A stretch of DNA of 64,000 bases, taken from positions 172,501 to 236,500 of the forward strand of contig JACVVK020000475.1 in the NCBI GenBank assembly GCA_018292915.2. Reading direction: 5' to 3'. A model generated the notes under the pieces. That model saw only the letters and a program-made list of their open reading frames with translations, searched no databases and was not told the origin of the DNA. Shown here piece after piece: positions 17,800-63,955 of this stretch; the first letter of the stretch is position 1; each line of letters opens with the position of its first letter. This DNA is from Batillaria attramentaria. Taxonomy: Eukaryota; Mollusca; Gastropoda; Batillariidae. Position numbers and translations under genes: made by a program.

Positions 17800-20408
<2,609 letters not shown>

Positions 20409-25919: not shown

Positions 25920-26095
25920 ATGCAGGAGACGGGAAGCGGCTATCATGCTGCTGGAGAGGAACGTGATCATCGTTACAAGATGATTGCTGATCCACGGGGT
26001 AAAGTCAAGTAAAATGATAGCTAGATGATACAGTGATTTCAGTGAATGGTTTATCGAAATTCAATCATGGTTCTTTTTCTGCAGTTTCTACAATG

Positions 26096-26147
<52 letters not shown>

Positions 26148-27025
26148 GCTGGGTGGATGGGTAGGTGTAGTGGGTGTCTGGAGGTTCAACGTCCTTTTCC
26201 ACCACATGCGGGTGATATCAAAGACAGATCAACCAGGAAAACGTCAGCGGGAGATAACAATCAGAGAATAATCTGACAATAAAAACAGTGTATTTTCTTA
26301 TGCTTTTTTTTTTTTTTTTTTTTGGGGGGGGGGGGGAGGGGGGTTTGTTTTGTTTGTCATGCTTTTGTTTAGTGTTGTTGTTGTTGTTGTTGTTGTTGTT
26401 TTTAACGAAGCTGCTTCATTTTTCAGGTCCATGTCTGATATTTAACAACAAAACGTTCACAGCAGCCAACGGGGCTCCCATACCTGATCTTCCTACAAGA
26501 GAAGGCACTGACATCGACAGAGGTTTGGAAATCAGTTTTGTTGTTGTTTAGTTGGAGTTGTTGCTGCCACTTGGTGTTATTGCCGCCATTATCCCCATAT
26601 ATTTCAAGGTGTCTAATGCGACTTTTCAACAGTCAAAACATGCTTTTGATTATTGTAACGACATGTTTGAGGCGAGTCAATTTGATATATATATATATAT
26701 TTAAAACGGGTTGCAGACAAACTGAGCACAGTATTCAGCACTTTGAAGTTTGGCGTGCAATGGTATGAAAACGTGACAAGCACACAGATGCTTCGAATTC
26801 TGACACGGGTTGCTGACGACGACAACCAGAATAAGGATTTCGACTGTTTCGTCTGCTGCATCCTGTCACACGGCGATGAAGGCCATGTCTATGGATCCGA
26901 TGGAGTTTCCATTAGAATCCAACAGCTGGTGGATAGAGTGTCTACACATGGTTCACCAAAGTTTGCGGGAAAACCAAAACTGTTCTTCATTCAGGCGTGC
27001 CAAGGCGCATTCGTACAAGGAGGTG

Positions 27026-27059
<34 letters not shown>

Positions 27060-30012
27060 CGAACATGGTATTGATGCCAAAACTCTCTCTCTCTCTCTGT
27101 TCGAACATGGTATTGATGCCAAATCTTTTACCGTTCGAAAATAAAGATTATTGTCATTCCCATTGTGATTGTCTCTCAACACCAATACACATTCCTATAT
27201 GACGTAAATGTGTTTATAGTCATCTTTATTTTTCTGTGTTTATATACAGTTGTGCACGTCAAATGGCAGTAAGTGTATCTGCATCTGCATCTGAAGCAAC
27301 AAAAAAAAAGTCTGGTAAGAATTTTGAAAATGTTCTGCGCAGGTCGTCCTGTTCATGAGTCTGACTCAGCGCCAGACATGCAGCGGTTCATCCCCGAGAA
27401 TACTGACTTCCTGATCGCCCACTCTACTCTTCCCGGGTATAAAGCCTTCAGGGATCCCGCAAACGGCTCTCTCTTTATTGCCAAGCTGACTGAAGTACTC
27501 AACTCTGAAGCCCATAGGTAATAATGTGAATGCTCGAATATTTCGTACGCAGCAGTAAATAAATTAATAAATAAATGTCGGATTTTTCCAGCAGTAAAAA
27601 ACAACCTTCTTTATTTCCAAGATCACGGAGACCAAGTCGTCTAAGCAGATGTTTAACATATCGGCAAGTTGACTGCTAGAAATGATCCCTCCCCACTACC
27701 AACCATCTTTCCACCTGTCGAGTGCTGAGTTTAGATGCTGACAAAGTTGAGAAAGAACTATCTTCTCAGTGATTTTGAACAGGAGTGGAAGTTTGCACAC
27801 TGGCCGATAGTTCTTGATACTGTTCGGATCAAGAGAGGGTATCTTAAAGAGCGGTTTCGCTTAAACAGTTTTGAACACAGAGGGGAATGAGCCAGAGGAC
27901 AGAGATTCATTGTTCCTATTTGTCACTGCTGGCAACAGCTCATCAAGACACTCATGGAGAAAACTGGTAAGATGTGGGTGTTTTCCACATCTTTTGTGCA
28001 GTCTTCATCCTGTGTCTTTTGTGCAACCTCTTGTTCAGTGTCAGGCGTGAAGGCAGTAAGGGGGGCGGAGGGGGGAGGGGGGGGGGCTCACCGTATATAG
28101 TGTAACACAATCACGTTTGCGTTTGACGCTGTCTTTGGTCAGCGCATCAAACACTACAGAACTTCTCGGTGGTCATTGTGGCAGTGGAGCCGTCTGATGC
28201 CCGACTTTCTGATCTCACTTCCGACATCGTGTCAGTGATTTACCTCAGTACTTAGTTCTTCCGGTCGCTTCTATCATTTAATTAGATGAAGGTTGTTCCC
28301 ACTTTCATGAAATCGTCATCCGTTGACTCCAGGCGGGACATCGTGAAGATGCTGACAATGGTGAACGACAAGCTGGCGGACGTAGACGTGACTTTACCCG
28401 GCTATCGAGGCATCTCCAAACAGGCGTCTGTGTTCCAGAGTTCGCTTCGGAAGGACCTGTATTTTTATCCCGACCAGATAACCTACAGGGCTACTGTGAC
28501 CGGTATGTTCGACTCATACACACCAAGTGCCAACCATACCCACATTAGTACAAAAAATAATTCATACAAACATCTTTTTCGTTCTGCTTCTGCTAGTCTG
28601 ACAGACAGCTTCTTATAATGAGTTGTTTTCGTTTGAATAATTATTAGCGCTTTGCAAACGTTGTCTTATCGAAATTGTTTTCATTATGTAGCCCCAGTTC
28701 ATATGCATCGTACTAAAGATGTGTCTTCCTTCCCCAAACAGAAACAGGACCTGTCGAGACTTGCAAAGTGTCTAGGCCGATAGACTATCGATGTGACGAC
28801 CTGTCGGCTATTCCTGCTGCAAGACCAGAGTATAGTGGTGAGGCAAAACGTTTTGCAATTAATCCTCATAGACAAGTCAAGATTTGTAGACATCTAAACA
28901 CTCGCGCGCGCGCTGATATCCAAGAGGTATACAAATAGTCTTTGCTTGTGAAACAGTAGCCGTGTTATCCCAACCAGATAACCTACAGTCCTACTATGAC
29001 CGGCACACCCGACGCATACACACCACGTTCCAACCATACCCACAGAAGTAACAAACACAATTCTTACGAACATGAATGTCCTTTTCGTTCTGCTGCTGCT
29101 AGCCTGACAGACAGTTTGTTGTGATTATCCTATAAGTTATTTTCGTCTGAATAATTATTAGCGCTTTGCAAGAGTTGTCTCATCGCCTTTGCTAGATTTA
29201 AAACCATTTTATTTTGTAGCCCAAGTTCATTGCAACGTACAAAAGATATGTCTTGCTTCCCCAATCAGAAACAGGACGTATTGAGATATGCCAAGTGTCC
29301 AGGCCGACAGACTATCGATGTGACGACCTGTCGACTGGTCCTGTGGCAAGACCAGAGTATAGTGGTGAGGCAAAGCGTTTTGTGATTAACCCTTACTATA
29401 CATAAAACAAGATTTGTAGACATCAAAACACTCTCGCGAGCGATGATATCCAAGACGTATACGAGTAGTGTTTGCTTTTGAAACAGCAGCCTGGTTGGTT
29501 GGTTGCTTGGTTTTTTGGTCGGTTGGTTGGTTGGTTGTTGGCTTTTGGAAGGAAAATTTTAGAATGCTTACGTACCTTCATTTCTCGGTGAATTAGGTCA
29601 TGTCAGTAGTGCGGGAAATGTTCCTGTCGATCCCAGCCCATTACCCTGACCACACCCCGTACGTCGTAAAACCTGTGATGTGATGTCGTTCCTGGATAGA
29701 TGCACTTTACATTTAGAGAACATGAGTTTTATTCAAGTTTGTATTTCCCCTCTTATAACAGGTTCCACCATGCAGGTGTACGTAAGTACCCTCACTGGCC
29801 AACCTTTCACACTGACTGTGGAGGAAAGTGAAACCATCAGAGCAGTAAAGTCCAAGATTCACCACCAAGAAGGAACACCACCGAGCCAGCAGCGTCTGAT
29901 CTACGGTGCCAAGCAGCTGAAGGACGAGTGTACACTAAAGGACTACAACATTGAGAACGAGGCCACACTACGCTTGGCTGTTCGCCGGCCTGGTGAGACT
30001 AATGGTGGTTAG
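25920..30012 (+). CDS. Caspase with C-terminal ubiquitin-like domain (caspase gene A)
   Basis: Eight exons join in phase: 25920-25998, 26427-26522, 26717-27022, 27343-27517, 28333-28502, 28742-28837, 29269-29364 and 29762-30012 (about 422 residues). An in-frame TAG at 25902 fixes the start, so there is no prodomain. The protease domain begins HRYKMIADPRG. P1-binding Arg is in TREGTDIDR, catalytic His in CCILSHGDEG (about residue 110), Cys in FFIQACQG (about 153), and the second P1 Arg in PGYKAFRDP of the small subunit, which ends SSLRKDLYF. Asp residues in HESDSAPD between the subunits are likely processing sites. Two near-identical 32-residue exons (PxDYRCDDLS) follow, then a ubiquitin fold starting MQVYVSTLTGQPFTLTVEE. 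The Ile44-type patch and Lys27/29/48 equivalents are kept, Lys63 is not, and the chain ends in Gly-Gly. An alternative donor (29992|gtgaga) could skip the final residues. The role is inferred: a death or immune protease carrying a ubiquitin-like tag. Confidence 0.9.
26098..26147. repeat. (TG)n microsatellite
   Basis: About 24 TG units in the first intron of caspase gene A. Confidence 0.95.
26165..26250 (-). mobile_element. SINE family 1, truncated to its 3' part
   Basis: On the minus strand the body (gtctttgatatcacccgcat) and tail (ggacgttgaa) are seen; the tRNA-like head is missing. It lies in the first intron of caspase gene A. Confidence 0.75.
27023..27155. repeat. (CT)n with a 48-bp direct duplication at a splice donor
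   Basis: Two copies of a unit made of (CT)n followed by gttcgaacatggtattgatg start within 10 bp of the caspase exon donor at 27022. The second runs into taccgttcgaaaataaagat, resembling LINE 3' tails elsewhere in the window. Confidence 0.8.
27690..28000 (-). mobile_element. LINE reverse-transcriptase fragment
   Basis: The minus-strand frame reads PLFKIPSLDPNSIKNYRPV, then CKLPLLFKITEKIVLSQL, the N-terminal reverse-transcriptase motif of CR1/Jockey-type non-LTR elements (usually NYRPISNLPFLSKILEKVV). It is short and interrupted. It lies in an intron of caspase gene A, antisense to it. Confidence 0.8.
28480..29470. repeat. Tandem duplication of about 500 bp carrying one coding exon
   Basis: About 28480-28970 and 28975-29470 are clearly related from the gaccagataacctac word at the end of the caspase exon through the small exon (28742-28837 and 29269-29364) and its downstream intron. 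Both exon copies keep open frames and intact splice sites. Confidence 0.85.
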
Positions 30013-34147: not shown

Positions 34148-34663
34148 TTAAGCAAATAAAAGCGACATGAAAGAGACAGAAACCACTTAACTTTGACAAA
34201 GGACGGCACAGGTCAACGTTTCGGCTTTCGCCTTCCTCAGGACACAAACAAATGGGACATAACTTCAACAAACAAACAAAAGGTAACTCTGCGGACGTAC
34301 TGACATACACGGCGCGGGGACAAAAAACCCGGGGCGAGAAAAGGACCAGAAAACAATAGTAAAATTATCACAACACCCATCCTTTGGTGACAGAAGACCA
34401 TGGACTGTGTGTGAAAAAAAAGTGGGGCAGAAAAGAACAGAAAAGAATAGTAAAAATTAGCAGACATCACAACACCCATCCTTTGGTGACACAAGACCAT
34501 GGACTGTGTGTGAAAAAAGTTCAGAGGGTTATGTTACGGCTTTTCGTTCAAACCACCCGGGGCCTGGCTTCCCAGGAAGGCGAAAGCCGAAACGTTGACC
34601 TGTGCCGTCCTTTGTGAAAGTTAAAGGGTTTCTGTCCCTTTTATGTCGCTTTTATTTGCTCAA
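34148..34663. mobile_element. MITE-like element with about 95-bp terminal inverted repeats
   Basis: The left arm (about 34148-34242: agcaaataaaagcgacat ... aacgtttcggctttcgcctt) is the reverse complement of the right arm (about 34569-34663). The interior holds two direct repeats of a roughly 90-bp unit (acccatcctttggtgacaga ...). It is non-coding and lies about 180 bp upstream of the start exon of caspase gene B. Confidence 0.85.
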
Positions 34664-34809
34664 CATATAATAGTATATTATCCTTTCTCCCGCCCCCCCC
34701 CCTCTCCACCCCCTCCCCAGTACATCTCAGCACTTAAAAAGTTTCTTAGAGTGGTGACATCCACGTTCCTTAGAGCGACGTAAATACATGTGATCTGTGC
34801 CTTTTTCAG

Positions 34810-34844
34810 CTCACAGACGATGAAGTAATCAACCAGAAAAAGCG
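34810..34844 (+). promoter_or_regulatory. 5' leader of caspase gene B with a two-codon upstream ORF
   Basis: A ctttttcag acceptor ends at 34809. The leader then contains ATGAAGTAA (34820-34828) before the start ATG at 34845; its TGA at 34821 also closes the main frame upstream. The minimal uORF could lower translation of the caspase. Confidence 0.5.
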
Positions 34845-37359
34845 ATGGCTCTGTCACACCCAGCTCTGCCTGAGCGTTATAAGATGACAGCTGATCCACA
34901 TGGTAAGTGTTTGTTTCCGCACTATCTATTCTCTATCATGAATACTGACCAACGAAGCTTTTCAGTTTAGTAGTTTCGCCTTGTGATTTTAGGCTGTATC
35001 ACTGTTGTTGTTGTTGTTGTTGTTGTTGTTTTCTCTTGTAAACCTACAGCACCTGCAGTGCGGAACAGGTTTATTTCTTGAAAATATCCGTCCAACTGAT
35101 TGAAATTGTAATCAGAGTAAGAAGTGTTTTATTTTGCACTCTTTGCCTTGAATGATATGTAAAAGCGTTATCGCTTTCATGAAAACATTCAATCAAGACA
35201 CACTCAGTCAACATTACTGAATGTTCTACTATTTAAAAACAAAACAAAACAAAAAAACCACCGTTATCGTTATGTTTTGCATGTGTCATTTTTTTCTCTT
35301 TAAGGGATTTGCATTATCATCAACAACAAAAATTTCAAAGGAGGAGATGGAGACTTAACTCCGGAACAGCTTACACGAGAAGGAACAGATATTGACAGAG
35401 GTACGTTTGATGTGTATGGTGTAAGCTCTGGCACAAAACAATTTCTTATACTCTTATAGTTCTCTCCGCATTTCTCTCTTTGCATTTCTTTTTCACCTTC
35501 TTAGGATACGTGCCCCCCCCCCCCCCCCACACACACACACGTTTGAAATTTGAGGGGCACAGGCTGTATCGAAGCTATATGGGTATTTGGCATTTTGTTT
35601 GGATGTGAATAGACAGCTGTAATTTCGAGTGAGGAATCGGGATTTATTCATCTAGAGTGCACAGTTCAGGGGAGACAATCCGCTCCTGAGTTCTCCCTTC
35701 AGGAAACCCATCTGTAATGATTGTGTTTGATGTAATCGAATTAAGAGTTAGTTTAAGGACTTAAATTTTAACTGATTTGTAACATTTTAACATCTTGAAT
35801 ATTCTTATTCTTTCTTATATTCCAATTCTTTTGGCTATTTTTAAAACAACAGAACTGTACAGGTTGTGCTGATGTGTATTGGTAAGTGCGAGAGCTTGTG
35901 CTTGGTTGTTGCATGAGAAATTCCCACCATGCATAGCGGTTTATCCCTGTCTTTGTAGTGGTGCAGTTATAGTTTCTCATCAAAGAATGGTATTTGACCG
36001 TCACTGCATTTTGATTGGTTACACCCTCTGCACGACCTTGACTGACTGCCTTTCTGTTTGGGTTGGACAATATTTTGCTGTGGGTAGTTTGACAGCTGCT
36101 TTTTCGTCGGTTTGGTGGAGACTTTATAGACTGGGCAGTAGAAATTGCAATGGAAACGGATCTGTATGGCTTTACCTTTTTGGCCGTGGTCGTTGTTTAT
36201 CTGTACTTGGCTGGTTTTAAACAATTTGCATATGCGTAAACATGACTGAATATACTCATATATCATGGGCATCAAATTATGAAGGAGTCACTTATAAATG
36301 TGATGTTAAGAAATTGGTTGGTTTTATTGATAGGATTTAATTTAAAGATGTCATAAACATGAAGATGATGATACTGGCTGAGGATTGGAAATTCACAGAA
36401 TTTCCAGGGGAACCGGGATAGCCGAATGGTAGAGTGTTGGACTCTCAATGCTCGGGTCCTGAGTTCGAATCCCAGCTGGGGCCAAATATTTGTGCTGGCC
36501 TTTTTCTTGTTGCCCCGTCTTTGATATCACCCTTACTTGGTGGAAAAGGACGTTAAACTCCTAAACACCCACCGACCCACCCAGAGAATTTTCAACGATT
36601 GGCGAATGGCTCACACTTGAAGAGTAAATTTCTGACTGAAACCTCTATCGTCAAATTGTAAAAAAGATCAAAGTACGTGGCGGATCCAAGGCGCTTATTC
36701 CCTTTTACACAATGGAAAAAGTCAAGTATCTAGCATTTATGAAAGAATCTAAACAATCACTACTTGCACTCGATGCCATCACAATATGTTACTTTTTTTT
36801 AAAAATGTCATCTGCAAGTTGTTTCCCCCCGCCCCACCCCTCCCCGTTACTGTAACTGACTTATAGGCGACCTACTAACTACGTACAGGTAAAATTGTAT
36901 TTTGATTCCTTTCCAGATAAGCTGAAAGATACTTTTAACAGGCTGAAATTTGACGTGATTTGTCATGAGGATGTCACGGACGAGGAAATGCTCCGGATTG
37001 TGTCGGAAGCTGGGCTCAAAGACCACTCAGAGTCTGATTGTATAGTCATCTGCATTTTGTCACACGGTAACAGAGGTGGAGTCTTCGGATGCAATGGCAG
37101 GGTCGTCTCCATTCAGAAGCTGACAGAGAGACTCTGCCCACAATCCTGCCCATCACTGTGTGATAAGCCTAAACTATTTTTTATACAGGCCTGCCAAGGC
37201 AGCAACATCCAAAGAGGCAAGTCTTTTGCAGTTTTGGTTACACATTTGTTTGTTACATTCGGATAGCGTTAACGTTCCTAGCAATGTTTAATTTGAACCT
37301 TTCACATTTCATAAATACTACTTTGTTTTGTACATCGGAGAATATCCACAAAAGCCCCA

Positions 37360-37391
<32 letters not shown>

Positions 37392-39687
37392 CAAGCCACC
37401 AATTTGTTTGGGAGCCAGAGTAGCCGAATGGTAGAGCGTTGGACTTTCAATGCGGTCGTGAGTTCGAATCCCGGCTGTGACCAAATATTTGTGCTGGCTT
37501 TTTTCTCGTTGCTGCGTCTTTGATATCACCCACATGTGGGGGGAAAGGACGTTAAACTCCCACCCACTCACCCACCCACCCATCAATTATTTGAAATTCC
37601 TGACGTGGCGACATGGGAACCAGAGGCTTGATGCATGTGTTGTGCAGGTTATCCAAGCGCTGTCTCTGACACTGACCCAGAAGCGGAGAAACTGATCCCT
37701 GGTGCCGCTGATTTCCTTCTGGCATATTCAACAGTCCCGGGCTACGTTGCTTTCCGAGATGGGAAAGGCGGTTCATATTTCATCTGCAAACTCACAGAAA
37801 TCCTCGACACACATGCAGACAGGTACATATAACCATTAACACGTTCCACGTGATCAAATGCATGTGTGTGGAGTTGATAATCTGATTACAGAGAGCATGT
37901 TTCTATAAGGAGTGGAAATTGTGAGGCTTTTGTGTAAAATCTTGAATTCTGTTAATTTTGTTGTTTTGTTTTTGATAGAGGGCGTATGTGTTCAGGTGTG
38001 GAATGTATATCTCGTTTGCCAAGTATCTACATTATCACTTGATTATCCATTCTGTCAACTTTGCCCGGCTTTCTGCGGGGAAAATCTGTAATCGCGGTGC
38101 TGCGCTGCCCATCTACCCATTTTTAAATTGCCGTGGGAAATGGGCGGGGAGGGGGGGGGGGTTGAAGAGAAGGGAAGGGGGATGCAGTCCCGTGAAGAAA
38201 CTCCTGATGAGCTGTCCAGAGGCCAGGAAAATCGTATGTGCCACAGCGTGGCCGCAGGTCCAACTTCACCATGACACTTGTGGCGGCCGTTTAGTCACGC
38301 CAAAGTCGGACGCCCTACCTACAAAATCACAGACCATCCCCTAAATCAAGACTGTTGAAACTTACGAGTGTTGCGTATCCGGTAGCGCCCTTCTAAACGG
38401 TTAAATACCATGTGTCACCAGCAGCGTTTTTCTTTCGTTTTCCAGACTTGACATCATAAAGATTCTGACAATGGTGAATAAGGAATTGTCGACCCTCGAC
38501 ATTTACGTAGACACACATGGCCATTGCAAACAATGCCCAGGGCAGCTCACTACACTGACAAAGGATCTTTACCTCGGCTGTACTCCAGTAACTGCTGCAT
38601 CTTCTGCAGGAGGTAAGACATGGAAATCATCACAAAAATAAAATATAATGTCTTAAAGCGAATCAGGAGCATCTGTTTAGACATTTTGTTGTCAACTTAC
38701 CCCCCATGGTTGCTGCTCTGTTTACAGACGATGGCTTGAATGAAGTCCGAAATTTGCCGATGGATGAGTCTGGCAACGTTTTCTCAGATCCTGAAGCAGA
38801 GCGGGAACATCCAGGTGAGCCCAGTTTAGGCAGTACAGTTTTAATAACTGTATTTTCTGAGATTTTCAGACATGTACTAACTGTATGAAGAAGCTCAAAC
38901 ACCATAATGTATTCAGTTAATAGGTAAACCTGTTGTGTGTATCTGAAACCAGTATAAGAGTGAAAAATTGTAATGGTTTTCAGCTTGATCACACGTAAAC
39001 CTTCATTATACCCAAGGGTAGTAAGTTTAAACTCAAACCGTTAAATCCTGTTTGAATCTGATTAAGATGATTTTGTGTCAAGATATAAGATGTTACTGAC
39101 TGCAAACGGATTGCATTACAATTTTGTTACCGCTATACGATAGTGCTAATTAAGCTGTCAGAACAAATGAATGTCTTGTGTTCTGTGTACTTATTCAATT
39201 AATTTTCCGTAAACTTTGTGTTTGCCGCTAGCTTAGATTTGCTCCCATTTACAGTGCGCTTCCCTGAGAGATTTTATGGAAAGGCCAATAACTTTTCTTG
39301 TGTGATGTCAATTCTTGTACAGATGCAAATGAGCATGAAGTGAACAACGAAGGAAACGAAGACTTCGAACTGGTGGAACGCGAGCGACTGATCCTGATCA
39401 TCGGGAAAACCGGAACCGGGAAAAGTACTGTGGGGAATATTCTCGTCGGTGGTGAAACGTTTCGGGTGGGCCAGGAAGGCCAGTCTTCTACCACTGTACC
39501 CAGCCTTTGTACACCAAGCACCGAATGTCTGTTGAAGGTATGCGTAGCCATGACGCTTTTTATCCGCACTAATGTTTGCATATATTATGCAAACTTAAGT
39601 TCATGGTTATTAACACTTAACAAGATCTACCATATCAACTCTGACCAGCCAGTACCAACCAATTAAATATTCCTGAAAAATGAATTG

Positions 39688-39766
<79 letters not shown>

Positions 39767-40293
39767 AAAAAAAAATTATGGGTTTCAAAAATTGTATGAT
39801 TTCCTTAAACTGTTGGAAAGTTCATTTCGACCAATAGCACCAGTATGCTAGTATCTCTTTCAGCTCACTAACAGTACACCGGTGTTTTACTGTTAATTGT
39901 TTCAGGTGGTGGACACAATCGACATTGACAATATGAAGCTAAAGTACCAAGGGAGAAAAGACGAGGTTTCCCGATGGAAGACTATCTGTGGAGGAGAACC
40001 CGACATCATCCTGCTGACTGCCAGATGTGACATTCCCTACACCGCTGAAGATTACGACTTCTACTGCCAAATGAAACGACTGTGGGGAGATGAGAAAGAG
40101 TTCTGCAGTCATCTCGTCGTTGGCTTCACTTTTGGTGATCGCCTGCAATTCGACATCGCGGGGAAAACGGCTGAGTGCCCTGAACTGGAACAAGTACTGA
40201 AAGATGCTGGGGGGCATTATGTCGTTTTCAACAGCAAAGCCGATAGTGCATTTAAAATGCAACAAAAAAGGAATCTCTTGACTATAGGTACAT

Positions 40294-40353
<60 letters not shown>

Positions 40354-41260
40354 GAAATGGGAGTACCACATCAATGCATTATGCCGTACAATCTCAAAAA
40401 ATGTATTTTTGTTGTCACAACTAAGAGATATCACTGACATTCACAGTCGCACTCTCTTCTTTCACGCACACATCAAGTCCCACGTCAACTATGCTTCCAC
40501 CATTTGGGACAACTGCACTGAAGTGCATTTCAACAGACTGAATTCGTTATACAAACGAGCGGTAAAAATGGTTATTCCTGGACCTATTCCGACTATACAA
40601 AAAATGAAACGGATGAACATTCTTAGTCTCCGAGAACAGCTCATGTTTAACAAATGTGTGTTCATGCATAAAATTCTCCATAATGCGGTTCCACCTTATT
40701 TAACATCTCTTGTCGGACTGGACCATACGCGTGTGAGGACTTCGAGGAATAACACTCTTCCCCTACCCCTACCTCGCATAGATTTGTTTAAAACTAGTCT
40801 CTCTTTCGCAGGAGCTTTTCTCTGGAATTCATTGCCATCATGTATTAAAACGGTCCATTCACTGCGAACATTTAAGCAGTTACTTACGCAGTACCTTGCA
40901 AACCTCATGTAGCTCGAAAGCACATGCTAAAACTGAAGGACACCCATTACCTCACTGTTCGAGGTTTCTGATATATGTAGTATCATGCTCTTTCAAAATT
41001 TCAAATGTAAATGCATATAGACATGTACATGTATGTATTAGTCCACGCTGAAACTTGCTAACTTGATGAGTGCTTGAGAGAGAGAGAGAGAGAGTCACCT
41101 GTAAATATTTGATCTCAATGTTTTAATTTTCTTTGCTAGATGTGTTTTAGTAGTGTGTAGCAACGGCAAGTTTGTAAATTGACGATTTTCTCTGTCAAAA
41201 CTTTAACCGTTGGAAAATAAAGTTTCATCATCATCATCATCTCTCTCTCTTTATAGGTAC

Positions 41261-41313
<53 letters not shown>

Positions 41314-43650
41314 ACCACTAAGTATCCAAAACATTTCCAAATTCACTGACTTCAAACAAATTCTACACGACACGCTCATCTGACCATGTAGGTAGATATG
41401 TGTTATATGCATGTTTTCGAATGTTAGTGACGACTTTGAAGTTCTTACTTGGCATACAGCCAACTTGTATCATCGACAAATGCCACGTGTGTTTTGATTT
41501 TTTATCATGTCTACTTTTCTCTTCTTCATTTTTTTTTTAGATAGTTAATACTTTTGTTTGTCTTTTTTCTCTCTTACCCCCCCCCCCCCCTTTCCCCCCC
41601 TTGTTTTGATGTTGTCTTTTTACCCTTTAACGTAGACTAGCAGGACAGCTTGTAAGACAGGCAGTAATGCCTAAATGCTTTATCCTGAATTAAAAAAAAC
41701 GTTTCATCATCATCATCTCTCTCTCTCTCTCGTAGATGTACAAGTGCATGAACATGTTTCGTACATGAAGTTCTTTTTGTACATTTTTTTGTTGTTGCGA
41801 GGTCATACAGAAAGCATCAAGAACACATCGAATATGATGGAAATATATCAAACGCAAATCAAAAGTGCACCCAAAAACAATACACAATACACGAATGTAA
41901 CTGTTTGGGTTTTTTTCTGTCTTTTCTCGAGCAGATCAAGAGAAATGCAAATGGGCGACCGAACCTGATCACTCTTTGATCTCCTTTCTGGTCGCATCGG
42001 TGGAGAACTACTTCTGTGAGATTTTATTAATTTTTCGTTTAGCGATTACATTTTTTCTATTTTTTGATTTGAGATTCCGTACAGTAATGGCCTGCTTTCA
42101 TGAGTCTTGGTCTAGAATACAGTAATGGGACAAGGGGAAGAAAAGAAAGTGGCAGAGGAGTGCTGAAGTAATCCACAGGTTATGAACTGGAAGTGATAGG
42201 TGAAGGACAGAGAGCCAGAGAGTCAAAGACACTATGCAAAAATATTCCTCTTCATATGTCTGCAGCCGGCAGTAGCAGATCTGAGCCAATGGATGAATCC
42301 GTCTACTTCCCATCAGCCCACGAAGCAGGGTTGGAACATGCAGGTTAGCTCAACCAATCTGCTACCACGATATGCGATCTCACGGGAAAGGACATACATG
42401 CTCCTCCAAAGCTCGACGGCTGATTCTGTATTAACGTGTGACTAGTTTAGTGAGTGATAACATTTCAGAGAATGTATTCAAAATGATTTTAGCTGTTTCT
42501 TGAACAAATATGAGAACAATGTCCTACTTCTTCACATTTTCTAATTCTTCTACTTCCTCCTCAGCTTCTTCCAGTAGTACTAGCAGTGTTACGTACGTTA
42601 TTCTCAGGAGAAGAGATCAGTGTCTAAATGAAGTTTAGATCTTGAAACATGTTTCAAGTCGGCCCATTTCGGTCTCAGGTTGAAAAACAAAAAAACAAAA
42701 AAACAATCATTCATCCCGGCTGTTTGCCCTTGTAAAGCGGTATAGAGCATCTCAAGGCAGGGGTGGATGAGTGGTTACTCGGGCGGGAGTTTAACGTCCT
42801 TAAGAAAAAGAAAAGAAAAAGGCCAGTACAAATATTTGGCCCCAGCCGGGATTCGAACACTACACACGCTACAGGCAGTAGCACGTGTCATAATCTGTTG
42901 TCATGTGCAGGCGAACAAATGCAGTCTGAAAACAACGACGATCTGGAAGATGACTTCGAGCACATCGACAATGAACGAGTGGTCATCATATTCGGAAAGA
43001 CCGCAAGCGGAAAGAGCTCTGTGGGGAACATTCTGCTTAATGAAGAAAAGTTCCGGGTGGGCCAACCAGACATGTCTCCCACCGATGCCCACAGCTGTTG
43101 TTCACCAGGTGCATGTAGTATCAAGGTATGATAGACATTTTTTTTTTTCTCCAAAATAAACGTTAACTTTAGGCGTGCCATGTTAGCCCCCTTCCTCTGA
43201 AAGTATTGCCGTGCAAGGCATTTCATATTTCAGAACTTTACTGTTCATTTTTTTTTCTGCTTAAGGTGGTGGACACAATCGACATTGACAATATGGAACT
43301 CACCTACGAAGGGAGAAAAGACGAGGTTTCCCGATGGAAGACTATCTGTGGAGGAGAACCCGACATCATCCTGCTGACTGCCAGATGTGACATTCCCTAC
43401 ACCGCTGAAGATTACGACTTCTACTGCCAAATAAAACGACTGTGGGGAGATGAGAAAGAGTTCTGCAGTCATCTCGTCGTCGGCTTCACTTTTGGTGATC
43501 GCCTGCAATTCGACATCGCGGGGAAAACGGCTGAGTGCCCTGAACTGGAACAAGTACTGAAAGATGCTGGGGGACATTATGTCGTTTTCAACAGCAAAGC
43601 CGATACCGACCACAAAATGCAACAGAAGTCCAACCTCATGGCGATAGGTA

Positions 43651-43729
<79 letters not shown>

Positions 43730-46620
43730 CAAATAACAACAGTATTCAGTCTCTTATAATAATAATAATAACAACAACAGAAGGAAAAATTGTAACCGTG
43801 TGTTTTTATCCGATCAGATAGAAAGAAATGCGAAGAATGGGTCGTGCCAGAGTCCGGTAGCCCTTCCGGCCTTCTCTCAATCAGCATGTCGGAGAGTGTC
43901 CTATCATGTGAGACAATTCTCTTTTATTCTTTATATGCAAACCTGACGTCGCTGTGAGGAACATGCTTCGTGATAGTCTTGCCTCCGCTTAGTTTCCTTT
44001 AGTGTCCCTCCACGCCATCCCCCCCCCCCCCCCCTCCTTCTTTCTAATCATTTTCTAATCATTTTTTTCCTGTGCTGGGAACTCCTAGTTCCCGTGATCA
44101 CTCTTCCCATGCAGACACAGTTCTCTCCCTTGCAGCGTCCACTTACCTATTCACTCCCTTCGAGTTGCTGGTTTTGTTAGTTAGTTATTCTGTGTCCTAC
44201 ACGGCATGGAGGGGTATGGAACAATCCATAATTTTGCTTTCAACATGTTAAAATTGATCGTCATGTATTCTTCCATGCATTATCTCTAGATGCAATTGTA
44301 GCCGCATGTGTCGTAAATGGCAAGGACAATTTTGCACTAGGGGCCTGAGTGACTGACAACCTCTTTTCCTTGAACAAAAAGTCAGTCAGTCAGTCAGTCG
44401 GTCAGTTGTTGTGTGTTTATTTGTTTTGTTTGTTTTTTGTTATTTTGTTGTTGTTGTTGTGGGGCTTTTTGTTTGTTTGGTTTTTTCTTTTCTTTTTTGT
44501 TTGTTTGTTTGTTTGTTTGTTTGTTTGTTGTTGCTGTTGTTGTTGTTTTGGGGGGCGTGTTTCAACATATGGTTATTGGTAAATCCATCGGATTATGACT
44601 GCCGAAGCTAGTCCTGTATGTACCAGATATAGCTCAAATCCCCCAGATAAAGTGTATGAACGGATGTTTTGGTGAACATTGTCCCATAAAAATCCCATCA
44701 CCTAGAGTTTTCTACCAAAATATATCAAGCTAGTTTTGAGATATATGGCAATGAATATAATGTAAATTATGAAAGAAAAGTTAAACAAGTACCTATGATA
44801 CATGAAAAGGCACTGCCAAATACCAAACGATACAACCAAACAATCGAATTAAAAAGAAATGAAGCAAGAACATAGGTGGGCGAATATGCCTGGAGTTATA
44901 CGGAAAAGTAAATCTTAAAACTCCAAACGCATTGCCAATTTCGGTTTCACTAGAGAAATCCTCAGAATATATATATATATATATATAATTATATATAATT
45001 AAGCAATATATATATATATTGCTTAATTTTCCAGGACAGTCCTGACATTAGGTAAATTTTGAGGCGGGTGTTACGAGCGTGGCTGTGCCTTTTTGTTTGT
45101 GTTGTGTTTTGTATGCTGTAGGATAACAGCTGTAATGTTTTTTTGTAGTTTTAGTGAGATAGAGAAGTCGCCATGTTTAGTTCATATTCTGTTTTAGAAA
45201 TGTAAATCTGTTTCCAACACATCTCCACACGTAACAGCGGGCTTGAAACCATAACTGTGCTGTGATTATGCCATTGTTGATGAATGAATGAAGTACCACC
45301 GATACGCACTAGATCGTAGTTGTTTGTCTTCTTGTTGTTTTATTGATTAATACTCAGACATGTAAATACAAATTAGCATTTTGGTGACGTATGATTTCAT
45401 TTCATTTCCTTACAGTCGCATTCCCTGAGGTCTCCAACTCGATCATTGCCAGTTACAACAAATTCTGGTCACTGGCAGGCTTCTCTGGTGAGGATGCGTG
45501 CACTGGCTTGTTTTGTGGTAGCAAGAAATGTTCAGTCTTCCATGTGAATCTAGCTATCTAGTAACACAGATTTTCGTATGGAAGGGTTTAAGGGGAAAGG
45601 TAGAGGAGGGTAGAGGGTGGGGGCGGTGCCAAGCAGAGACATGAGGCACCTATTCACATGAATTTTTGAGACATTCTTTTTAGGAAACAGTTCTTTGTTT
45701 TTACAAAGGGTCCAAAGAAGAGATCAAAACACACAAGCATTGAACAGTTTTGCAGGGAAAAAAGTTATCATGTTCGATGCTGTCTCACTTTGGGTTGACT
45801 TGTTTCTCAGTTTTGTCTGTTTGTATGCTTTTTTGTTTGCCTTTTGTTGGAACCGCGAAATAGTCCTTGTTGCTTGCTCGGCGTAAAGCCCTAAATAACT
45901 AACTAACTTGCCTTTTGTTGATTTTTCTGACAACCTGTTTCTCCTCTGTTTTCAGTGGACAGTGACGCTGGCGACCTTGTCTCAGTTCCCGATGCAGAGC
46001 AGGAACACGCCGGTGTACTCCTTTCAGGTAGTGGACACACAGACTGATTGTGTGATAGTAGTGGACACACAGACTGATTGTGTGATAGTAGTGGACACAC
46101 AGACTGATTGTGTGATAGTAGTGGACACACAGACTGATTGTGTGATAGTAGTGGACACACAGACTGATTGTGTGATAGTAGTGGACACACAGACTGATTG
46201 TGTGATAGTAGTGGACACACAGACTGATTGTGTGATAGTAGTGGACACACAGACTGATTGTGTGATAGTAGTGGACACACAGACTGATTGTGTGATAGTA
46301 GTGGACACACAGACTGATTGTGTGATAGTAGTGGACACACAGACTGATTGTGTGATAGTAGTGGACACACAGACTGATTGTGTGATAGTAGTGGACACAC
46401 AGACTGATTGTGTGATAATCGTTTCTATATCATTCTTAGGTGCAAACAATGCCGAGTATAATCATAGGCAATCGGCGGTATTCACATTTCTAAAACAATG
46501 CCACACTTATGCCATTCTGTTTTCAGTGTAGCGTATGCTACGTGCTTGCAAGGTATGCCACCGAAAACTCTAACATATGGAACTGTTATTATTGTTGCAG
46601 AGGACATTCGAGGCGTGTAA
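34845..46620 (+). CDS. Caspase fused to two AIG1/GIMAP GTPase modules (caspase gene B)
   Basis: Exons: 34845-34902, 35305-35400, 36917-37216, 37648-37822, 38446-38612, 38728-38814, 39323-39537, 39906-40287, 41935-42015, 42266-42343, 42911-43125, 43266-43647, 43818-43907, 45416-45487, 45956-46012; the terminal exon(s) are uncertain, possibly ending GTG TAA at 46619. All joins keep phase, giving over 800 residues. The caspase starts MALSHPALPERYKMTADP with no prodomain; catalytic His is in CILSHGNRGG (about 101) and Cys in FFIQACQG (about 144), with P1 Arg in TREGTDIDR and YVAFRDG. After a linker exon, AIG1 module 1 has GKTGTGKST (about 322) and VVDTIDIDN; module 2 has GKTASGKSS and the same G-domain exon. 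Acidic linkers (SDPEAEREHPG, AHEAGLEHAG, PDAEQEHAG) precede each module, including a third whose AIG1 part is missing. The intron after 37216 uses a GC donor. Inferred role: a GTPase-regulated caspase. Confidence 0.9.
36406..36582 (+). mobile_element. SINE family 1, full length
   Basis: A and B boxes, gtctttgatatcaccctta and ggacgttaaactcct are present. Imperfect flanking copies of agaatttcca/agaattttca suggest a target-site duplication. It lies in an intron of caspase gene B. Confidence 0.88.
37410..37581 (+). mobile_element. SINE family 1, full length
   Basis: It has the complete head, body and ggacgttaaactccc tail, with approximate flanking repeats (ccaatttgtttg and tcaattatttga). It lies in the GC-AG intron of caspase gene B, 60 bp before the next exon. 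Confidence 0.88.
39691..39764. repeat. (TG)n(GA)n microsatellite
   Basis: About 20 TG and 17 GA units in the intron that splits AIG1 module 1. Confidence 0.95.
40346..41240 (+). mobile_element. 5'-truncated LINE (non-LTR retrotransposon) 3' end
   Basis: An open frame of about 186 codons to 40912 encodes the C-terminal reverse-transcriptase 'thumb' region (WEYHINALCRTISKNVFLL, VNYASTIWDNCTEVHFNRLN, LFKTSLSFAGAFLWNSLPS), followed by a 3'UTR and a (CAT)n/(CT)n tail. The family looks CR1/Jockey-like. It sits in the intron after AIG1 module 1 of caspase gene B. The open frame suggests a fairly recent insertion. Related tails occur at 41640-41735 and 22640-22725. Confidence 0.87.
41250..41735. other. 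(CT)n tracts and a second LINE 3' tail
   Basis: (CT)n at 41262-41310 and a C run at 41578-41590 precede gactagcaggacagcttgta ... and a (CAT)n(CT)n end at 41703-41732, resembling the tail of the neighbouring LINE. It is intronic in caspase gene B. Confidence 0.6.
42760..42859 (-). mobile_element. SINE family 1, internally deleted
   Basis: On the minus strand: B box (ttcgaatcccggctggggcc), then ttaaactccc after a deletion of the gtctttgatatc body. It ends about 50 bp before an AIG1 exon of caspase gene B. Confidence 0.8.
43651..43727. repeat. (CT)n(CA)n microsatellite at a splice donor
   Basis: It starts 3 bp after the donor of the second AIG1 G-domain exon (43647). The first module has a matching (CT)n tract (40298-40349) after its donor. 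Confidence 0.95.
43908..45415. other. Long intron of caspase gene B
   Basis: It contains a C run (44022-44035), T/TTG-rich sequence (44430-44550) and a perfect AT-rich palindrome, ttaagcaatatatatat and its complement, at about 44999-45027. No other exon was recognised. Confidence 0.6.
46028..46417. repeat. 13 perfect copies of a 30-bp repeat resembling the start of an AIG1 exon
   Basis: The unit starts gtagtggacacacagactga, continues ttgtgtgata, and repeats 13 times without a difference. The sequence leading into it (tttcag|gtagtggacacaca) mirrors the acceptor and first codons of the AIG1 G-domain exons (tttcag|gtggtggacacaat, 39906). In that frame a unit reads VVDTQTDCVI. It lies where a third AIG1 module of caspase gene B would be expected. 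Confidence 0.93.
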
Positions 46621-47017
46621 ATCACTTGAGCGGGTACCGTAGAAGACATGGTGTACAGTCCACAGACTAGTCTACACACGTACTGACTGCTACGGATTCA
46701 AGTTGACGGATCTCTTTCGGACTCACCAGGCAGCTCCAGGAAGATGCTTGGCCTACTGCGACTGAAAGGTTGAACTGTAGAAGTGCAAAGGTTTTAATGT
46801 CTATATGTACAATGTGTTCATTTGTCTAACATGTTGTTTTTCGTACCTATGGGAACTTTTCACGTCATCACCTTTCCCGTGGATGTGCGGCGCGGGCGAG
46901 ACTTTTTCCTCCGTATAGAATACTAGTTCACTATGTCTATATAATATGTTCGAGTATGTCAACTACTGTTTTGTGAGGTTCTCAGTAAGGGAGTTTCCCA
47001 CTTTGTTATATCAAAGA

Positions 47018-47023
47018 AATAAA
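47018..47023 (+). terminator. Candidate polyadenylation signal of caspase gene B
   Basis: AATAAA about 400 bp after the likely stop of caspase gene B, in AT-rich sequence. Confidence 0.5.
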
Positions 47024-51715: not shown

Positions 51716-53261
51716 ATGCAGAAGGCAGGAAATGGACAGCAGGGTCCAAGGGAGGAAACCCGCTACAGGATGACTGCAGATCCAAGGGGTAAACAATTAT
51801 TCAATTGTACAATTATTTGCACAATTATCGCTGAAATATATATACAAAGTTGTAGTGTTTTTGCCATGGCACTTATTCTTAAACCATACCTCAAGACAAC
51901 CGTTTCAGTAACCCCTCTCTCTCTCTCTCGCTCTATGTGTGTGAAAGTGTGTTTATCCAACAAGTGTTTATTTAGATCGATATCATTTTTGTGTGCAAAG
52001 ACGTGTATAAAAAATTATTATTATTATTATTATCATAAGGATTTGACAGTTAAAATGTTCATCATTCTGTAAATACTCTGACTGATTTGTTAATTAGTCG
52101 GGTTTGTCATTTCCAGGACTGTGTCTGATATTCAACAACAAAATATTCAGAACGGCTGACGGGTTTCCCATACCTGATCTACCGACAAGGGAAGGAACTG
52201 ACGTCGACAGAGGTTAGAACATCATCAATATCTGGTAGGCCCGGTGTCACATGGCAGACGAAACTCCCGGCAGGAATGACACCGGGGCTGCTCCAGCATT
52301 AAGCTGTATTGGCATGGGTCACTTTAAGCTTACACATACACATAGCTTCATTCATAAGCCGGAAGTGCATCTTAGCAGTGGAATCAAATATACCGTCTAC
52401 ACCGGTGTGTTATGAAGAGGCCTTTATATATATTCACGTTTGCTGTGTATTAGAGTAAAAAACAACAACAAAAAACCCTTTCATTCTTTGTTCAGCTTCA
52501 GGTCCGGACAAAATTAGTGTGTCCTTTACAGACAAAGCTGCCTTCGCCCTGTGGGAAGAGGGGGGGGGGGGTCATGTCCAGTGTATGAGAGAATGCGTGT
52601 GATTCGCGTGAGCGTGCGTGTTGGGTTCAGCTCGCGGCGCTATGATCCAGATCGAGAAATATCAATTGCAATTGGGTAAAAGCGCCCACAAAATACACAG
52701 TTGTTTATTATTATTATGAAACACGATCGTTTTCTTCTGCTCTACAGACAAACTGAAAACGACATTCAGCGCTTTGAGGTTTGAGGTTCGATGCCACGAA
52801 AACAAAACAGACATGCAGATGATCAGGATTTTGGACGACGTTGCTCGTGACGATGACAAAAATAGACAGATGGATTGTTTTGTCTGCTGCATCCTGTCAC
52901 ATGGCAGTAAAGGCCGCGTGTTCAGCTCCAATGGAGGTCTGATTAAAATCCAACATCTGACCGACAGAATGTCCGGTCTGTCATCACCAGAGCTTGCAGG
53001 AAAACCCAAGCTGTTCTTCATTCAGGCCTGCCAGGGTCCGGTCGCACAAAGAGGTAAAATGTACTTTAATCAAACGTGCAAGAGTAGTTGTAGTGGAGGT
53101 AGTGGTAGAGGTAGTGGTAGCAGTAGTAGGTTAAAAAGTACAATGCACGAGGCATCAAAATGCCCATATAATAATAATAATACATTCTTATATAGCGCAG
53201 TATCCCCACAAGGTGAGCTCAACGCGCTTCACAATTTCCGACTAAACTAATAAGAGTCTAC

Positions 53262-53315
<54 letters not shown>

Positions 53316-55254
53316 GCCATTCCACCAGCAACAGGGCTTAGGACGCGTCAAAATCTGTTCCCATATGTTCCCTATTAGCGTCAGGCATCATAGTCACCCT
53401 TCAAAATGCTTTTTTTTTTTTTTTTTGCTGCCCCAACTCTTTGCTTGCTCCAGTGGTGTTCCTCCCAGGTCATGGGTGGAACCCACGAACCCACGGAGGA
53501 CTCGGAAGCTAGGGCAATTTTTTATTATGCATGATGATGGAGATGAGGATGATAGTAAGATGATGCTATGGAGGTCCATGTGGTTTGGGACTGCGAGCCA
53601 GGGCCGCATTCCACGCTTCCTGTCGTAAATAACCCGGCATTAACCAGGCCCGGGAACTACGGCACCTGCGGTGCCGGCCGTGTAATCATCCACATCATAA
53701 GACGTGTCATACTAAGGGAAGCACCCCCAAAGTCGCACCCGTGAAGTGGGTGAAACTCGGCTGTGTGGCAACAGCCTCCCCATCGGGCCCATAGCACACC
53801 CGCTCTGGGTAGGAGCCGACCTAGGTAGGAAAAATCCCGCTTGCCTCGGCTGGGATTCGAACCCGGGTCTCCCGGTCCATGATCCGAAGTGCTAACCACT
53901 ACACTACGGGGGCCGGTAAAATGCTTTCATCTGGAAGTGAAATTTCCATGCACAAACCATTCAAGGGTGCGTACCTCACAGGATTTTAAAAACAATTCAA
54001 TGTCTCCTTTCCGCTCAGGCTTCACTAGCGTAATGCTAGTCTACTTTCTATTCAGACCAGAAAGCCACTTCACCCAAATACATCTTTGCCTCTCTAGTGC
54101 GCAAAAAGTCCCAGCTTCACTGGCATCTTGCCTCCCCTTGCAACCCCCTGGCACGCACCTTTTCCCACCAAATACAAAAATCCCGCTTTTTCAGAAATCA
54201 CTACAAACTAGCACACTCGCAAAACAGTGGCGCGTTTTATAGAACGAGGAAAACAAGCCCCTACGTAGCGGGAGAGCAGCTAGGCGTTTTAAAGGTCAAG
54301 GCGACTTGGCACCCTTGCCAAACACAAAATATCAGTTACAAACTCACGAAAATCACGCTCTTCCTTGACAACAAAATCACTACAAACTAGCACACTCGCA
54401 AACCAGGGTCTTTCAAATAAACACCAAACCTGACACCACGGTCAGTTTGTCATTACACCTGTAGTAGCAGTGGTGGAAGAAGAAGAAGAAGAAGAGATGG
54501 AGGAGCAGTAGAGATCGGAATGTTATTTGTGTAAGGTGAATCTTGCCCACATTGTGCGCAGGGTGTCCAGTTCAGATAGACGCGACTCCTGACGACCACG
54601 TTTTCATCCCTGAGCACACTGACTTCCTGATCGCCCATTCCACCCTGCCAGAGTTTGCATCTTTCAGGATTCCACAGAACGGCTCCTTCTTCGTTGACAA
54701 GCTGACTGAAGTACTCAACAATCACGCGCACAGGTTCGGGACGTTGTTATTGTTGGGTCTACTGTATTGTATGCTTGGGAGTTCAGTTGTCAGGTTGTCT
54801 TCTATCAGAGGACGCCCGTTACTGTAGTGCAGCGCCAACCACAGTAACCACATGTTTTGAATGTTGTGGTGGGGGGATGGTGGAGGGGTGGTGGGGTGAA
54901 GAGAGCCGAAGAATCTGGAGAAAAAAAAACCTTTAAGCAGCCCGGGGTTCAGGAAACATTAGTATCACACATATAATTATATCCTAGCTCGGTAGGACCA
55001 TCTCAGTCTAGACGACCGTTTAGTGACCAATCTTTCAAAAGTTGTCCGCGCTAACAGTTGAGTCACTTCTGGTTGGGTACAATTGCGTTGAACAGCGTCA
55101 CTGAGTTTTGTTGTTGTTATTGTTCTTATGGGTTGTTGTGGTGGTGTTTTGTTTGCTTATTTGTTTGTTTGGTTTCGTGTCTGAGAAAACTAATGCTTTG
55201 GTATTCCTCTATGATCTGTTGATCCCGGCTTTAGGTTTGTCTGTCAGGTAGTTC

Positions 55255-55305
<51 letters not shown>

Positions 55306-55564
55306 CCTAACCTCCTTCCTTCCTTATCTACTTACTTACCCAGTGTTCACATAGTTGCTCCGTTAATCACTAAGAAACTGGTATTTGTAGTAAAAAAGAG
55401 TCTCCTTCATTTTGTTTTCTAAAGCCAGGACATTGTGAAGATGTTGACAATGGTGAACGACAAGATTGCCTCTGTGGACCTATTCCATGCCCACGTGACA
55501 GGCATCTCCAAACAGGCGTCTGTCTTCTCCAGTTCACTTCGGAAAGATCTGTACTTCAACACCG
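51716..55564 (+). CDS. Caspase domain of caspase gene C (5' half of a probable caspase-SH2-ZU5 gene)
   Basis: Five exons join in phase: 51716-51788, 52117-52212, 52748-53053, 54562-54733 and 55425-55564, identical in number, borders and nearly in size to genes A and B. An in-frame TAG at 51695 supports the start, so again there is no prodomain. The protein starts MQKAGNGQQGPREETRYRMT. P1 Arg is in TREGTDVDR, catalytic His in CCILSHGSKG (about 108), Cys in FFIQACQG (about 151), and the small subunit has the second Arg in FASFRIPQ and ends SSLRKDLYF. Acidic residues in VQIDATPDDHV between the subunits may be the processing sites. The last exon either ends at a gtcaga donor (55564, phase 1), joining the linker exon at about 56153, or reads through to TGA at 55618-55620, giving a stand-alone caspase. 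Phase agreement and the plan of its sister genes favour the fusion, but the donor is weak. Confidence 0.88.
53263..53312. repeat. (CA)n microsatellite
   Basis: About 25 CA units in an intron of caspase gene C. Confidence 0.95.
53413..53917 (-). mobile_element. SINE family 2, full length (505 bp) with target-site duplication
   Basis: The minus-strand head has a tRNA-like A box (gtagtgtagtggttagcac) and B box (gggttcgaatcccagccg), then a body shared with 7362-7545, and a 3' part (gttggggcagc) shared with 9286-9467. Ten-bp copies of aaaatgcttt flank it (53403-53412 and 53918-53927). It lies in an intron of caspase gene C. Confidence 0.9.
54734..55424. other. Intron of caspase gene C
   Basis: T/TTG-rich sequence at 55108-55175 and a (TAGT)n repeat at 55255-55306. 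No exon was seen. Confidence 0.6.
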
Positions 55565-56124
55565 GTCAGATACTTCATATTTCTACATGTAAACGCACTA
55601 AGATATGGCATGTTTTATGAATATGTTCTTACTTGCACCAATCTTCGTTTACGCAACGTTTCTCGCTGTTAAACATTATTTCTATTGTTTGTTTACTATT
55701 GTGCTTACATTCAAATCATACGATGTTAAGTCAGCACTTCCCCCAAACCGTACTGGTTTAAACAAGTTGATTGCAACAGAGGTTGTAGAAACGTGACAAA
55801 TAATGAGCATGAACAAGCACGGCTTATGGTAATACTCAGGGTGGAACAGATACATTGTGACAAACTTCACTGAGAAAGTCACGAAGTTTCGTCGATACAT
55901 CATGAACATTGACGAAGGTACGGACGTTTGAATGAAAGTGCGGGTGAAATTGTACCCATGGTGTACGGCAAAGGTTAACTAATGAACAAGAGTTCGGTAT
56001 CCTTCATGCCAGTCTCCTATGCAGTTTATTAAATTTTTATTATATTCATAATATTTTTGGTTGTTGTTTGTTTGTTTGTTTTTTCTATTTTCACAACTTA
56101 TGTGGGTGAAATGCTGAATGTCTG

Positions 56125-63955
<7,831 letters not shown>

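What the first reader, a model, noticed from the sequence alone, without database searches (positions are those of the whole stretch)
34845..46620. Caspase-GIMAP fusion: one protease followed by two AIG1 GTPase modules
Fifteen exons connect in a single reading phase from a prodomain-less caspase with intact SHG and QACQG motifs, through acidic linkers, to two AIG1 G domains with intact GKTGTGKST and GKTASGKSS P-loops. AIG1/GIMAP and caspase domains are both linked to lymphocyte or immune cell death but, to my knowledge, not described in one polypeptide. A GTPase placed C-terminal to a caspase suggests nucleotide-driven assembly or membrane scaffolding that activates the protease.
Basis: partly seen in the sequence, partly recalled or inferred. 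Interest (0 to 1): 0.9.

Follow-up and report, generated by a model that had tools for sequence, protein, structure and literature searches.

The report
Snail caspase fused to GTPase domains
In the genome of a mud snail, exons for a cell-death protease (caspase) and for two immune-type GTPase domains join in one open reading frame and are likely made as a single protein, whose GTPase part would gather and switch on the protease; sister caspase genes nearby appear to carry other add-on domains.

Summary
In Batillaria attramentaria, 16 exons at 34845-46620 join with matching splice phases into one 824-codon frame: a caspase without prodomain (PF00656, E 2.7e-51, SHG and QACQG intact), then two AIG1 domains (PF04548, E 4.6e-41). 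One intron is GC-AG. The deposited model (BaRGS_00035479) skips the catalytic exon but still joins caspase to both AIG1 domains.

It is not a one-off. Two genes on another contig share the caspase exon lengths and phases and run into AIG1. Of 60 caspase loci picked from the genome search, 6 have AIG1 within 6 kb downstream on the same strand, 0 on the opposite strand. P0122, a caspase-AIG1 frame on a 1,282-base contig of unnamed source, suggests spliced mRNA in a relative.

The window-type caspases form one clade, while their AIG1 halves fall on both sides of a deep split; sister caspases are followed by ubiquitin-like or SH2 exons. I read this as one caspase cassette with exchangeable C-terminal modules. 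Activation by GTP-driven gathering is inferred; the window's AIG1 domains have odd G3 and G4 motifs, and no B. attramentaria transcript was seen.

The parts
34845..34902 (+). exon 1: start codon and MALSHPALPERYKM, caspase N-terminus without death-fold prodomain
   Evidence: gene model; same N-terminus in deposited P0001
35305..35400 (+). exon 2 of caspase (96 nt, phase 1-1)
   Evidence: 96 nt in P0005, 105 nt in C128_2
36917..37216 (+). exon 3, catalytic p20 exon with SHG and QACQG (300 nt, phase 1-1), GC donor
   Evidence: 300 nt in P0005 and C128_2 too
37648..37822 (+). exon 4, p20/p10 linker and start of p10 (175 nt)
   Evidence: 175 nt in both C128 genes
38446..38612 (+). exon 5, end of p10 (167 nt), phase-1 donor before the next in-frame stop
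   Evidence: 167 nt in both C128 genes
38728..38814 (+). exon 6, linker L1 (87 nt, phase 1-1)
39323..39537 (+). exon 7, AIG1-1 P-loop exon (GKTGTGKST), phase 1-0
   Evidence: no in-frame Met before the P-loop
39906..40287 (+). exon 8, rest of AIG1-1 G domain
41935..42015 (+). exon 9, AIG1-1 C-terminal exon
42266..42343 (+). exon 10, linker L2 (78 nt, phase 1-1)
42911..43125 (+). exon 11, AIG1-2 P-loop exon (GKTASGKSS), phase 1-0
43266..43647 (+). exon 12, rest of AIG1-2 G domain
43818..43907 (+). exon 13, AIG1-2 C-terminal exon
45416..45487 (+). exon 14, extra C-terminal exon
   Evidence: present in P0001
45956..46012 (+). exon 15, linker L3, similar to L1 and L2
   Evidence: P0001 reads this stretch in another frame
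46601..46620 (+). exon 16, DIRGV and stop codon; least certain exon
   Evidence: AATAAA at 47018 downstream
25920..29997 (+). neighbouring caspase gene with linker exons, followed by a ubiquitin-like exon (about 29762-29997) whose phase fits as read by eye
   Evidence: deposited P0231 covers caspase and linkers, not the ubiquitin-like exon
51761..59694 (+). neighbouring caspase exons followed by SH2 exons; the join is not resolved (the SH2 exon asks for phase 2, caspase exon 5 seems to end in phase 1)

Best explanation
The window holds a 16-exon open frame that encodes a prodomain-less caspase followed by two AIG1 domains, most likely expressed as one protein in which the AIG1 part would bind nucleotide, self-associate and so bring caspase domains together to switch them on. 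Shown: the exons, phases, catalytic residues, P-loops, and sister genes with the same structure. Inferred: expression as one mRNA in this species, nucleotide binding, self-association and proximity-driven activation. The wider reading, also inferred, is that a five-exon caspase cassette ending in a phase-1 splice donor has repeatedly taken on C-terminal modules (two kinds of AIG1, ubiquitin-like, perhaps SH2) in place of the N-terminal DED or CARD of ordinary initiator caspases, giving different triggers to one type of death protease.
Against: No B. attramentaria transcript was seen: no 'lgn' row among the 120 listed in each exceeds 57% identity to its query (fragments outside the length limits could not show). 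Four deposited models (P0001, P0231, P0239, P0258) skip the catalytic exon, so a dead isoform is possible. G3 (DTID) and G4 (FTFGDR) of the window's AIG1 domains differ from GIMAPs of known structure, so GTP binding or hydrolysis may be lost. An AATAAA lies at 38637, just after caspase exon 5, so a caspase-only isoform is possible. The species of P0122 is not named and its frame stops near the border of the first AIG1 exon.
Confidence: 0.6

Rival explanations
1. Two neighbouring genes, a short caspase and a tandem AIG1 gene, that gene predictors and this model have wrongly joined.
For: Deposited models of this locus conflict (P0001 against P0002); AATAAA at 38637, an in-frame Met in linker exon 6 and one in exon 11; AIG1 exons also lie upstream of a caspase on the same strand twice, one of them belonging to the neighbouring fusion gene.
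Against: Same structure at two C128 genes; P0122 contig frame; no in-frame Met before the AIG1-1 P-loop in exon 7; only 115 bases between caspase exon 5 and linker exon 6.
Confidence: 0.13
2. The C-terminal modules are bait: they imitate host immune or ubiquitin-system proteins that pathogens attack, and tampering with them releases the caspase (integrated decoy).
For: One caspase clade with AIG1, ubiquitin-like and perhaps SH2 modules; odd G3/G4 in the window's AIG1 would suit a bait that need not act as an enzyme; bacterial caspases with up to 50 alternative C-terminal domains are described (passage of PMC7159879).
Against: No evidence of a pathogen factor that touches these domains was looked for or found; the predicted AIG1 folds look complete.
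Confidence: 0.2
3. Regulator or decoy caspase: splicing out the symmetric 300-nt catalytic exon makes a protein without protease that uses AIG1 to block the active form.
For: P0001, P0231, P0239, P0258 all lack that exon, whose removal keeps the frame.
Against: P0005 and the proteins P0122, P0121 and P0007 keep it; the caspase part of P0001 without it is not folded with confidence (pLDDT about 30 over most of residues 1-86); a non-canonical donor (window gene) or repeat masking before gene prediction may explain the skips.
Confidence: 0.12

Closest known systems
Caspase-8/10-like initiator caspases of molluscs (DED-DED-C14), e.g. Pomacea, Littorina, Gigantopelta
   Same: C14 domain; up to 54% identity to C128_2, the first sequence of the profile query (Pomacea P0243)
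   Different: They carry DED (Pfam PF01335); none was found near the window gene with one DED query, which has C-terminal AIG1 instead; window-type caspases form their own clade
GIMAP/AIG1 GTPases (human GIMAP2, 4, 7; Biomphalaria AIG genes)
   Same: PF04548, P-loop, FNSK where GIMAP4 has LNNK; GIMAP2 is the best structural match of the AIG1 part
   Different: Fused behind a caspase; G3 DTID and G4 FTFGDR; Biomphalaria AIG genes carry death, CARD, kinase, ARM or Hint domains, no caspase in the passages read (PMC7053062)
Amphioxus CARD+AIG1 and TNFR-caspase proteins
   Same: Domain-shuffled immune and death proteins in a marine invertebrate (passages of PMC12373286; PMC2575513)
   Different: AIG1 joins CARD there, not the protease; caspase joins receptor domains there, not a GTPase
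Bacterial EACC1-caspase systems
   Same: Constant caspase with alternative domains fused to its C-terminus (passage of PMC7159879)
   Different: Bacterial two-gene systems; likeness of layout only, kinship not tested

Membership tests
Caspase (C14A) | Pfam Peptidase_C14 over p20 and p10 | tested here: met
   E 2.7e-51, residues 20-252, profile 2-233 of 233
Caspase (C14A) | Catalytic His (SHG) and Cys (QACxG), substrate-pocket Arg residues | tested here: met
   SHG, QACQG and the Arg columns R54 and R198 invariant in four fusions; alignment to caspase-3; that these Arg residues line the S1 pocket is recalled
Caspase (C14A) | Protease activity | not testable with these tools
   no assay
DED/CARD initiator caspase | N-terminal death-fold prodomain | tested here: not met
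   one DED query (from P0013) gave no hit at E 1e-3 in 114 kb around the gene, of which 5 kb read N; the model and P0001 start 10 residues before the RYKM caspase start; CARD not searched
AIG1/GIMAP | PF04548 above curated cut-off | tested here: met
   140.9 bits for both modules, 74.1 bits for module 1 alone, cut-off 27
AIG1/GIMAP | G1 P-loop GxxxxGK[ST] | tested here: met
   GKTGTGKST and GKTASGKSS
AIG1/GIMAP | G3 DxxG | tested here: not met
   DTID where GIMAP4 has DTPG; 7 of 9 other rows on that side of the AIG1 tree show DTPD, in the other 2 the text pattern hit elsewhere
AIG1/GIMAP | G4 [NT]KxD-like | tested here: inconclusive
   FTFGDR aligned to FTRKDD; TFGD could serve with a shift of one residue
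AIG1/GIMAP | GTP binding, dimerisation | not testable with these tools
   no assay
Single fused polypeptide | Phase-matched splice sites across the caspase/AIG1 junction | tested here: met
   window gene, P0005, C128_2
Single fused polypeptide | Transcript spanning the junction | tested here: inconclusive
   only P0122 from another, unnamed source; no B. attramentaria transcript among the listed rows

The most novel reading that the evidence does not exclude
Snails have a constant-caspase, variable-module immune system: one five-exon protease cassette, ending in a phase-1 splice donor, plugs into AIG1 GTPases, ubiquitin-like or SH2 modules, so that different intracellular cues or tampered decoys each fire the same death protease, an animal counterpart of bacterial caspases with exchangeable C-terminal domains.
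Probability: 0.4. Interest if true: 0.86.

Novelty: new variant of a known kind. Interest (0 to 1): 0.72.

Why it matters
GIMAPs and caspases are both tied to immune-cell survival and death, but how GIMAPs meet the death machinery is, to my knowledge, unsettled. A natural fusion would put the two in direct contact and make the question testable: does nucleotide-driven GIMAP assembly switch a caspase on? The differing modules would also show how caspases can gain new triggers without DED or CARD prodomains, in an animal with a large AIG1 repertoire.

Tried and rejected
Standalone neighbouring genes: weakened by the conserved structure at C128 and by the P0122 contig, not excluded without RNA.

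Chance adjacency: 6 downstream same-strand pairs against 0.07 expected for random placement. Limits: I picked 60 p20-type loci from the 114 matches; AIG1 positions were typed only for contigs that carry both families, whose lists are capped (150 of 526 and 150 of 308 candidates scored); the figure of about 280 AIG1 loci is a rough guess; one of the six pairs (C289:194487) showed only in the closer scan of fetched contigs. Both families cluster, so the 0 opposite-strand pairs are the better control; 2 same-strand upstream cases also occur.

Caspase-SH2 as a settled fusion: rejected for now, because the SH2 exon asks for phase 2 while caspase exon 5 seems to end in phase 1 (read by eye). tRNA genes: none at 34000-47000. 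The rows of the VIA-align look at the P0005 model spanned residues of the caspase part only, so the AIG1 part of P0005 was not matched there; AIG1 structure rests on P0001. In the caspase tree three intended rows (P0252, P0271, P0283) dropped out because the motif search failed. In the AIG1 tree 11 proteins were tried besides the fusions, of which P0153, P0174 and P0241 gave no row. Proteins with both C14 and AIG1 among listed homologues: 3 of 120 listed (245 found), 2 of 120 (581), 5 of 120 (671); together six (P0001, P0002, P0005, P0122, P0239, P0258), all from Batillaria but P0122; the unlisted hits were not seen. 'lgn' is recalled as the Logan assembly of public read archives; no call says so.

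Papers: passages only of PMC10382545, PMC7053062, PMC12373286, PMC7836458, PMC8195603, PMC7159879, PMC3482391, PMC8201404, PMC2575513; others in the listings only; one search listed none.

Full report
Where it is. The window is part of scaffold C475 of a genome with 863 contigs and 715 Mb, which matches the Batillaria attramentaria assembly (863 scaffolds, 0.715 Gb; passage of PMC10382545). The deposited protein P0001, BaRGS_00035479, from a contig of the same length as C475 (506,417 bases), has the same domains.

The gene. Sixteen exons from ATG 34845 to TAA 46618-46620 splice into 824 codons with one terminal stop and matched phases. Fourteen introns are GT-AG and one, after exon 3, is GC-AG. 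Pfam finds Peptidase_C14 at 20-252 and AIG1 in two stretches. The caspase aligns with caspase-3 and caspase-8 and keeps SHG, QACQG and Arg residues that align with caspase-3 (their pocket role is recalled). One DED query found no such domain nearby. The AIG1 part is an exon module repeated twice: linker, P-loop exon, G-domain exon, C-terminal exon; a third linker exon follows. Between the two modules the P-loop exons differ strongly (63% nt identity, dS 0.73), whereas the G-domain exons are 93% identical, with 3 mismatches in the 297 bases at exon positions 44-340, which looks like a gene-conversion tract.

GTPase motifs. Both P-loops are intact. G3 reads DTID where GIMAP4 has DTPG, and G4 reads FTFGDR where GIMAP4 has FTRKDD. 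On the side of the AIG1 tree where the window's modules lie, 7 of 9 other rows show DTPD. The AIG1 domains of P0001 are modelled with high confidence over most of their length, and GIMAP2 is the best structural match. Nucleotide binding is plausible; hydrolysis and guanine choice are open.

One gene or two. For one gene: (a) the caspase exons keep the lengths 300, 175 and 167 and the phases in the window gene and two genes on C128, and each runs on into AIG1 exons; the first of these is deposited as P0005 with all its exons, the second as P0239 without two. (b) P0122 is a 311-residue frame on a 1,282-base contig with a complete caspase domain and the first 51 positions of AIG1, aligning with C128_2 at 53% over 322 columns; it spans what are six exons in C128_2, so it is most likely a cDNA, though its source is unnamed. 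(c) AIG1-1 has no in-frame Met before its P-loop within its exon. Against: conflicting deposited models, an AATAAA at 38637, and no B. attramentaria transcript: no 'lgn' row among the 120 listed in each exceeds 57% identity to its query.

A family. Mapping caspase, AIG1, ubiquitin-like and SH2 queries shows six caspase-then-AIG1 pairs on C475, C128 and C289. A further deposited fusion, P0258, matches exon 2 of the caspase locus near C289:184340 exactly (residues 31-63); its AIG1 may lie in the downstream stretch that reads N. The pair at C475:239017-243386 looks incomplete. A caspase followed by a ubiquitin-like exon occurs in the window at 25920-29997 and on C128; P0121 and P0007 show the two joined on contigs of 1,219 and 1,489 bases. 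Caspase then SH2 exons occur twice on C475, but the join is unresolved. In the tally, 6 of 60 p20-type loci picked from the 114 matches have AIG1 within 6 kb downstream on the same strand, 0 have it on the opposite strand on either side, and 2 have it upstream on the same strand; its limits are told under Tried and rejected.

Swapped modules. The caspase domains of the window-type genes (AIG1, ubiquitin-like and SH2 neighbours, with P0121, P0122 and P0007) form one clade of nine rows (100/99), apart from DED caspases; within it the window's ubiquitin-like and SH2 caspases group with the AIG1-bearing P0005 (98/91). The AIG1 domains are parted by a split with 100/96 support: the window's pair on one side; P0005, C128_2 and P0258 on the other. 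The simplest reading is repeated joining or exchange of C-terminal modules at a phase-1 intron. The C289 caspases lie outside the nine-row clade, so they may be a separate joining.

Mechanism. Initiator caspases are switched on by being brought together (established knowledge). GIMAP2 dimerises on GTP binding (passage of PMC8201404). A caspase that lacks a prodomain and carries AIG1 behind a likely flexible linker (pLDDT under 50 at 276-304 in P0005) would most simply be gathered by AIG1 assembly. That the modules are bait is a serious alternative given the variety of modules. All functional steps are untested.

The skipped exon. Four deposited models leave out the 300-nt catalytic exon (P0001, P0231, P0239, P0258). 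It is symmetric, so skipping keeps the frame. The GC donor may explain P0001 only. A dead isoform is possible; the caspase part of P0001 is mostly not folded with confidence.

Literature. Searches for caspase with GIMAP or AIG1 in several wordings listed no paper that, in its listing or in the passages read, describes a caspase-AIG1 protein. Biomphalaria AIG genes join death, CARD, kinase, ARM and Hint domains, amphioxus joins CARD to AIG1, and bivalve caspases have CARD, DED, DD or dsRNA-binding prodomains. The library holds open-licence papers only.

Noticed in passing
window 36917-37216 and paralogues: The catalytic caspase exon is missing from four deposited Batillaria models (P0001, P0231, P0239, P0258) although an open copy lies in the genome at their loci; it is a symmetric 300-nt exon in the three gene models made.
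   Followed up: partly
window 39906-40287 and 43266-43647: The two AIG1 G-domain exons differ at 3 of 297 central bases while their P-loop exons and exon ends are more diverged: a likely gene-conversion tract.
   Followed up: partly
window 40256-40912 (intron 8): An open frame that looks like a piece of a non-LTR reverse transcriptase (recalled likeness, not searched).
   Followed up: no
window 36418-36485, 37415-37485, about 42830-42870: tRNA-like repeats (likely SINEs) in introns, seen by eye; ARAGORN finds no tRNA gene there.
   Followed up: no
window 46028-46417: Thirteen exact copies of a 30-base minisatellite whose unit begins much like the start of the AIG1 G-domain exon (GTGGTGGACACA); perhaps a relic of a third module.
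   Followed up: partly
C289, protein P0258: The P-loop reads GKTGAAKSS, with Ala for the usual Gly, in one deposited caspase-AIG1 fusion.
   Followed up: no
window 18572-19394 and 24414-24548: AIG1 exons upstream of the caspase with the ubiquitin-like exon; the caspase queries found nothing before them in the window.
   Followed up: no
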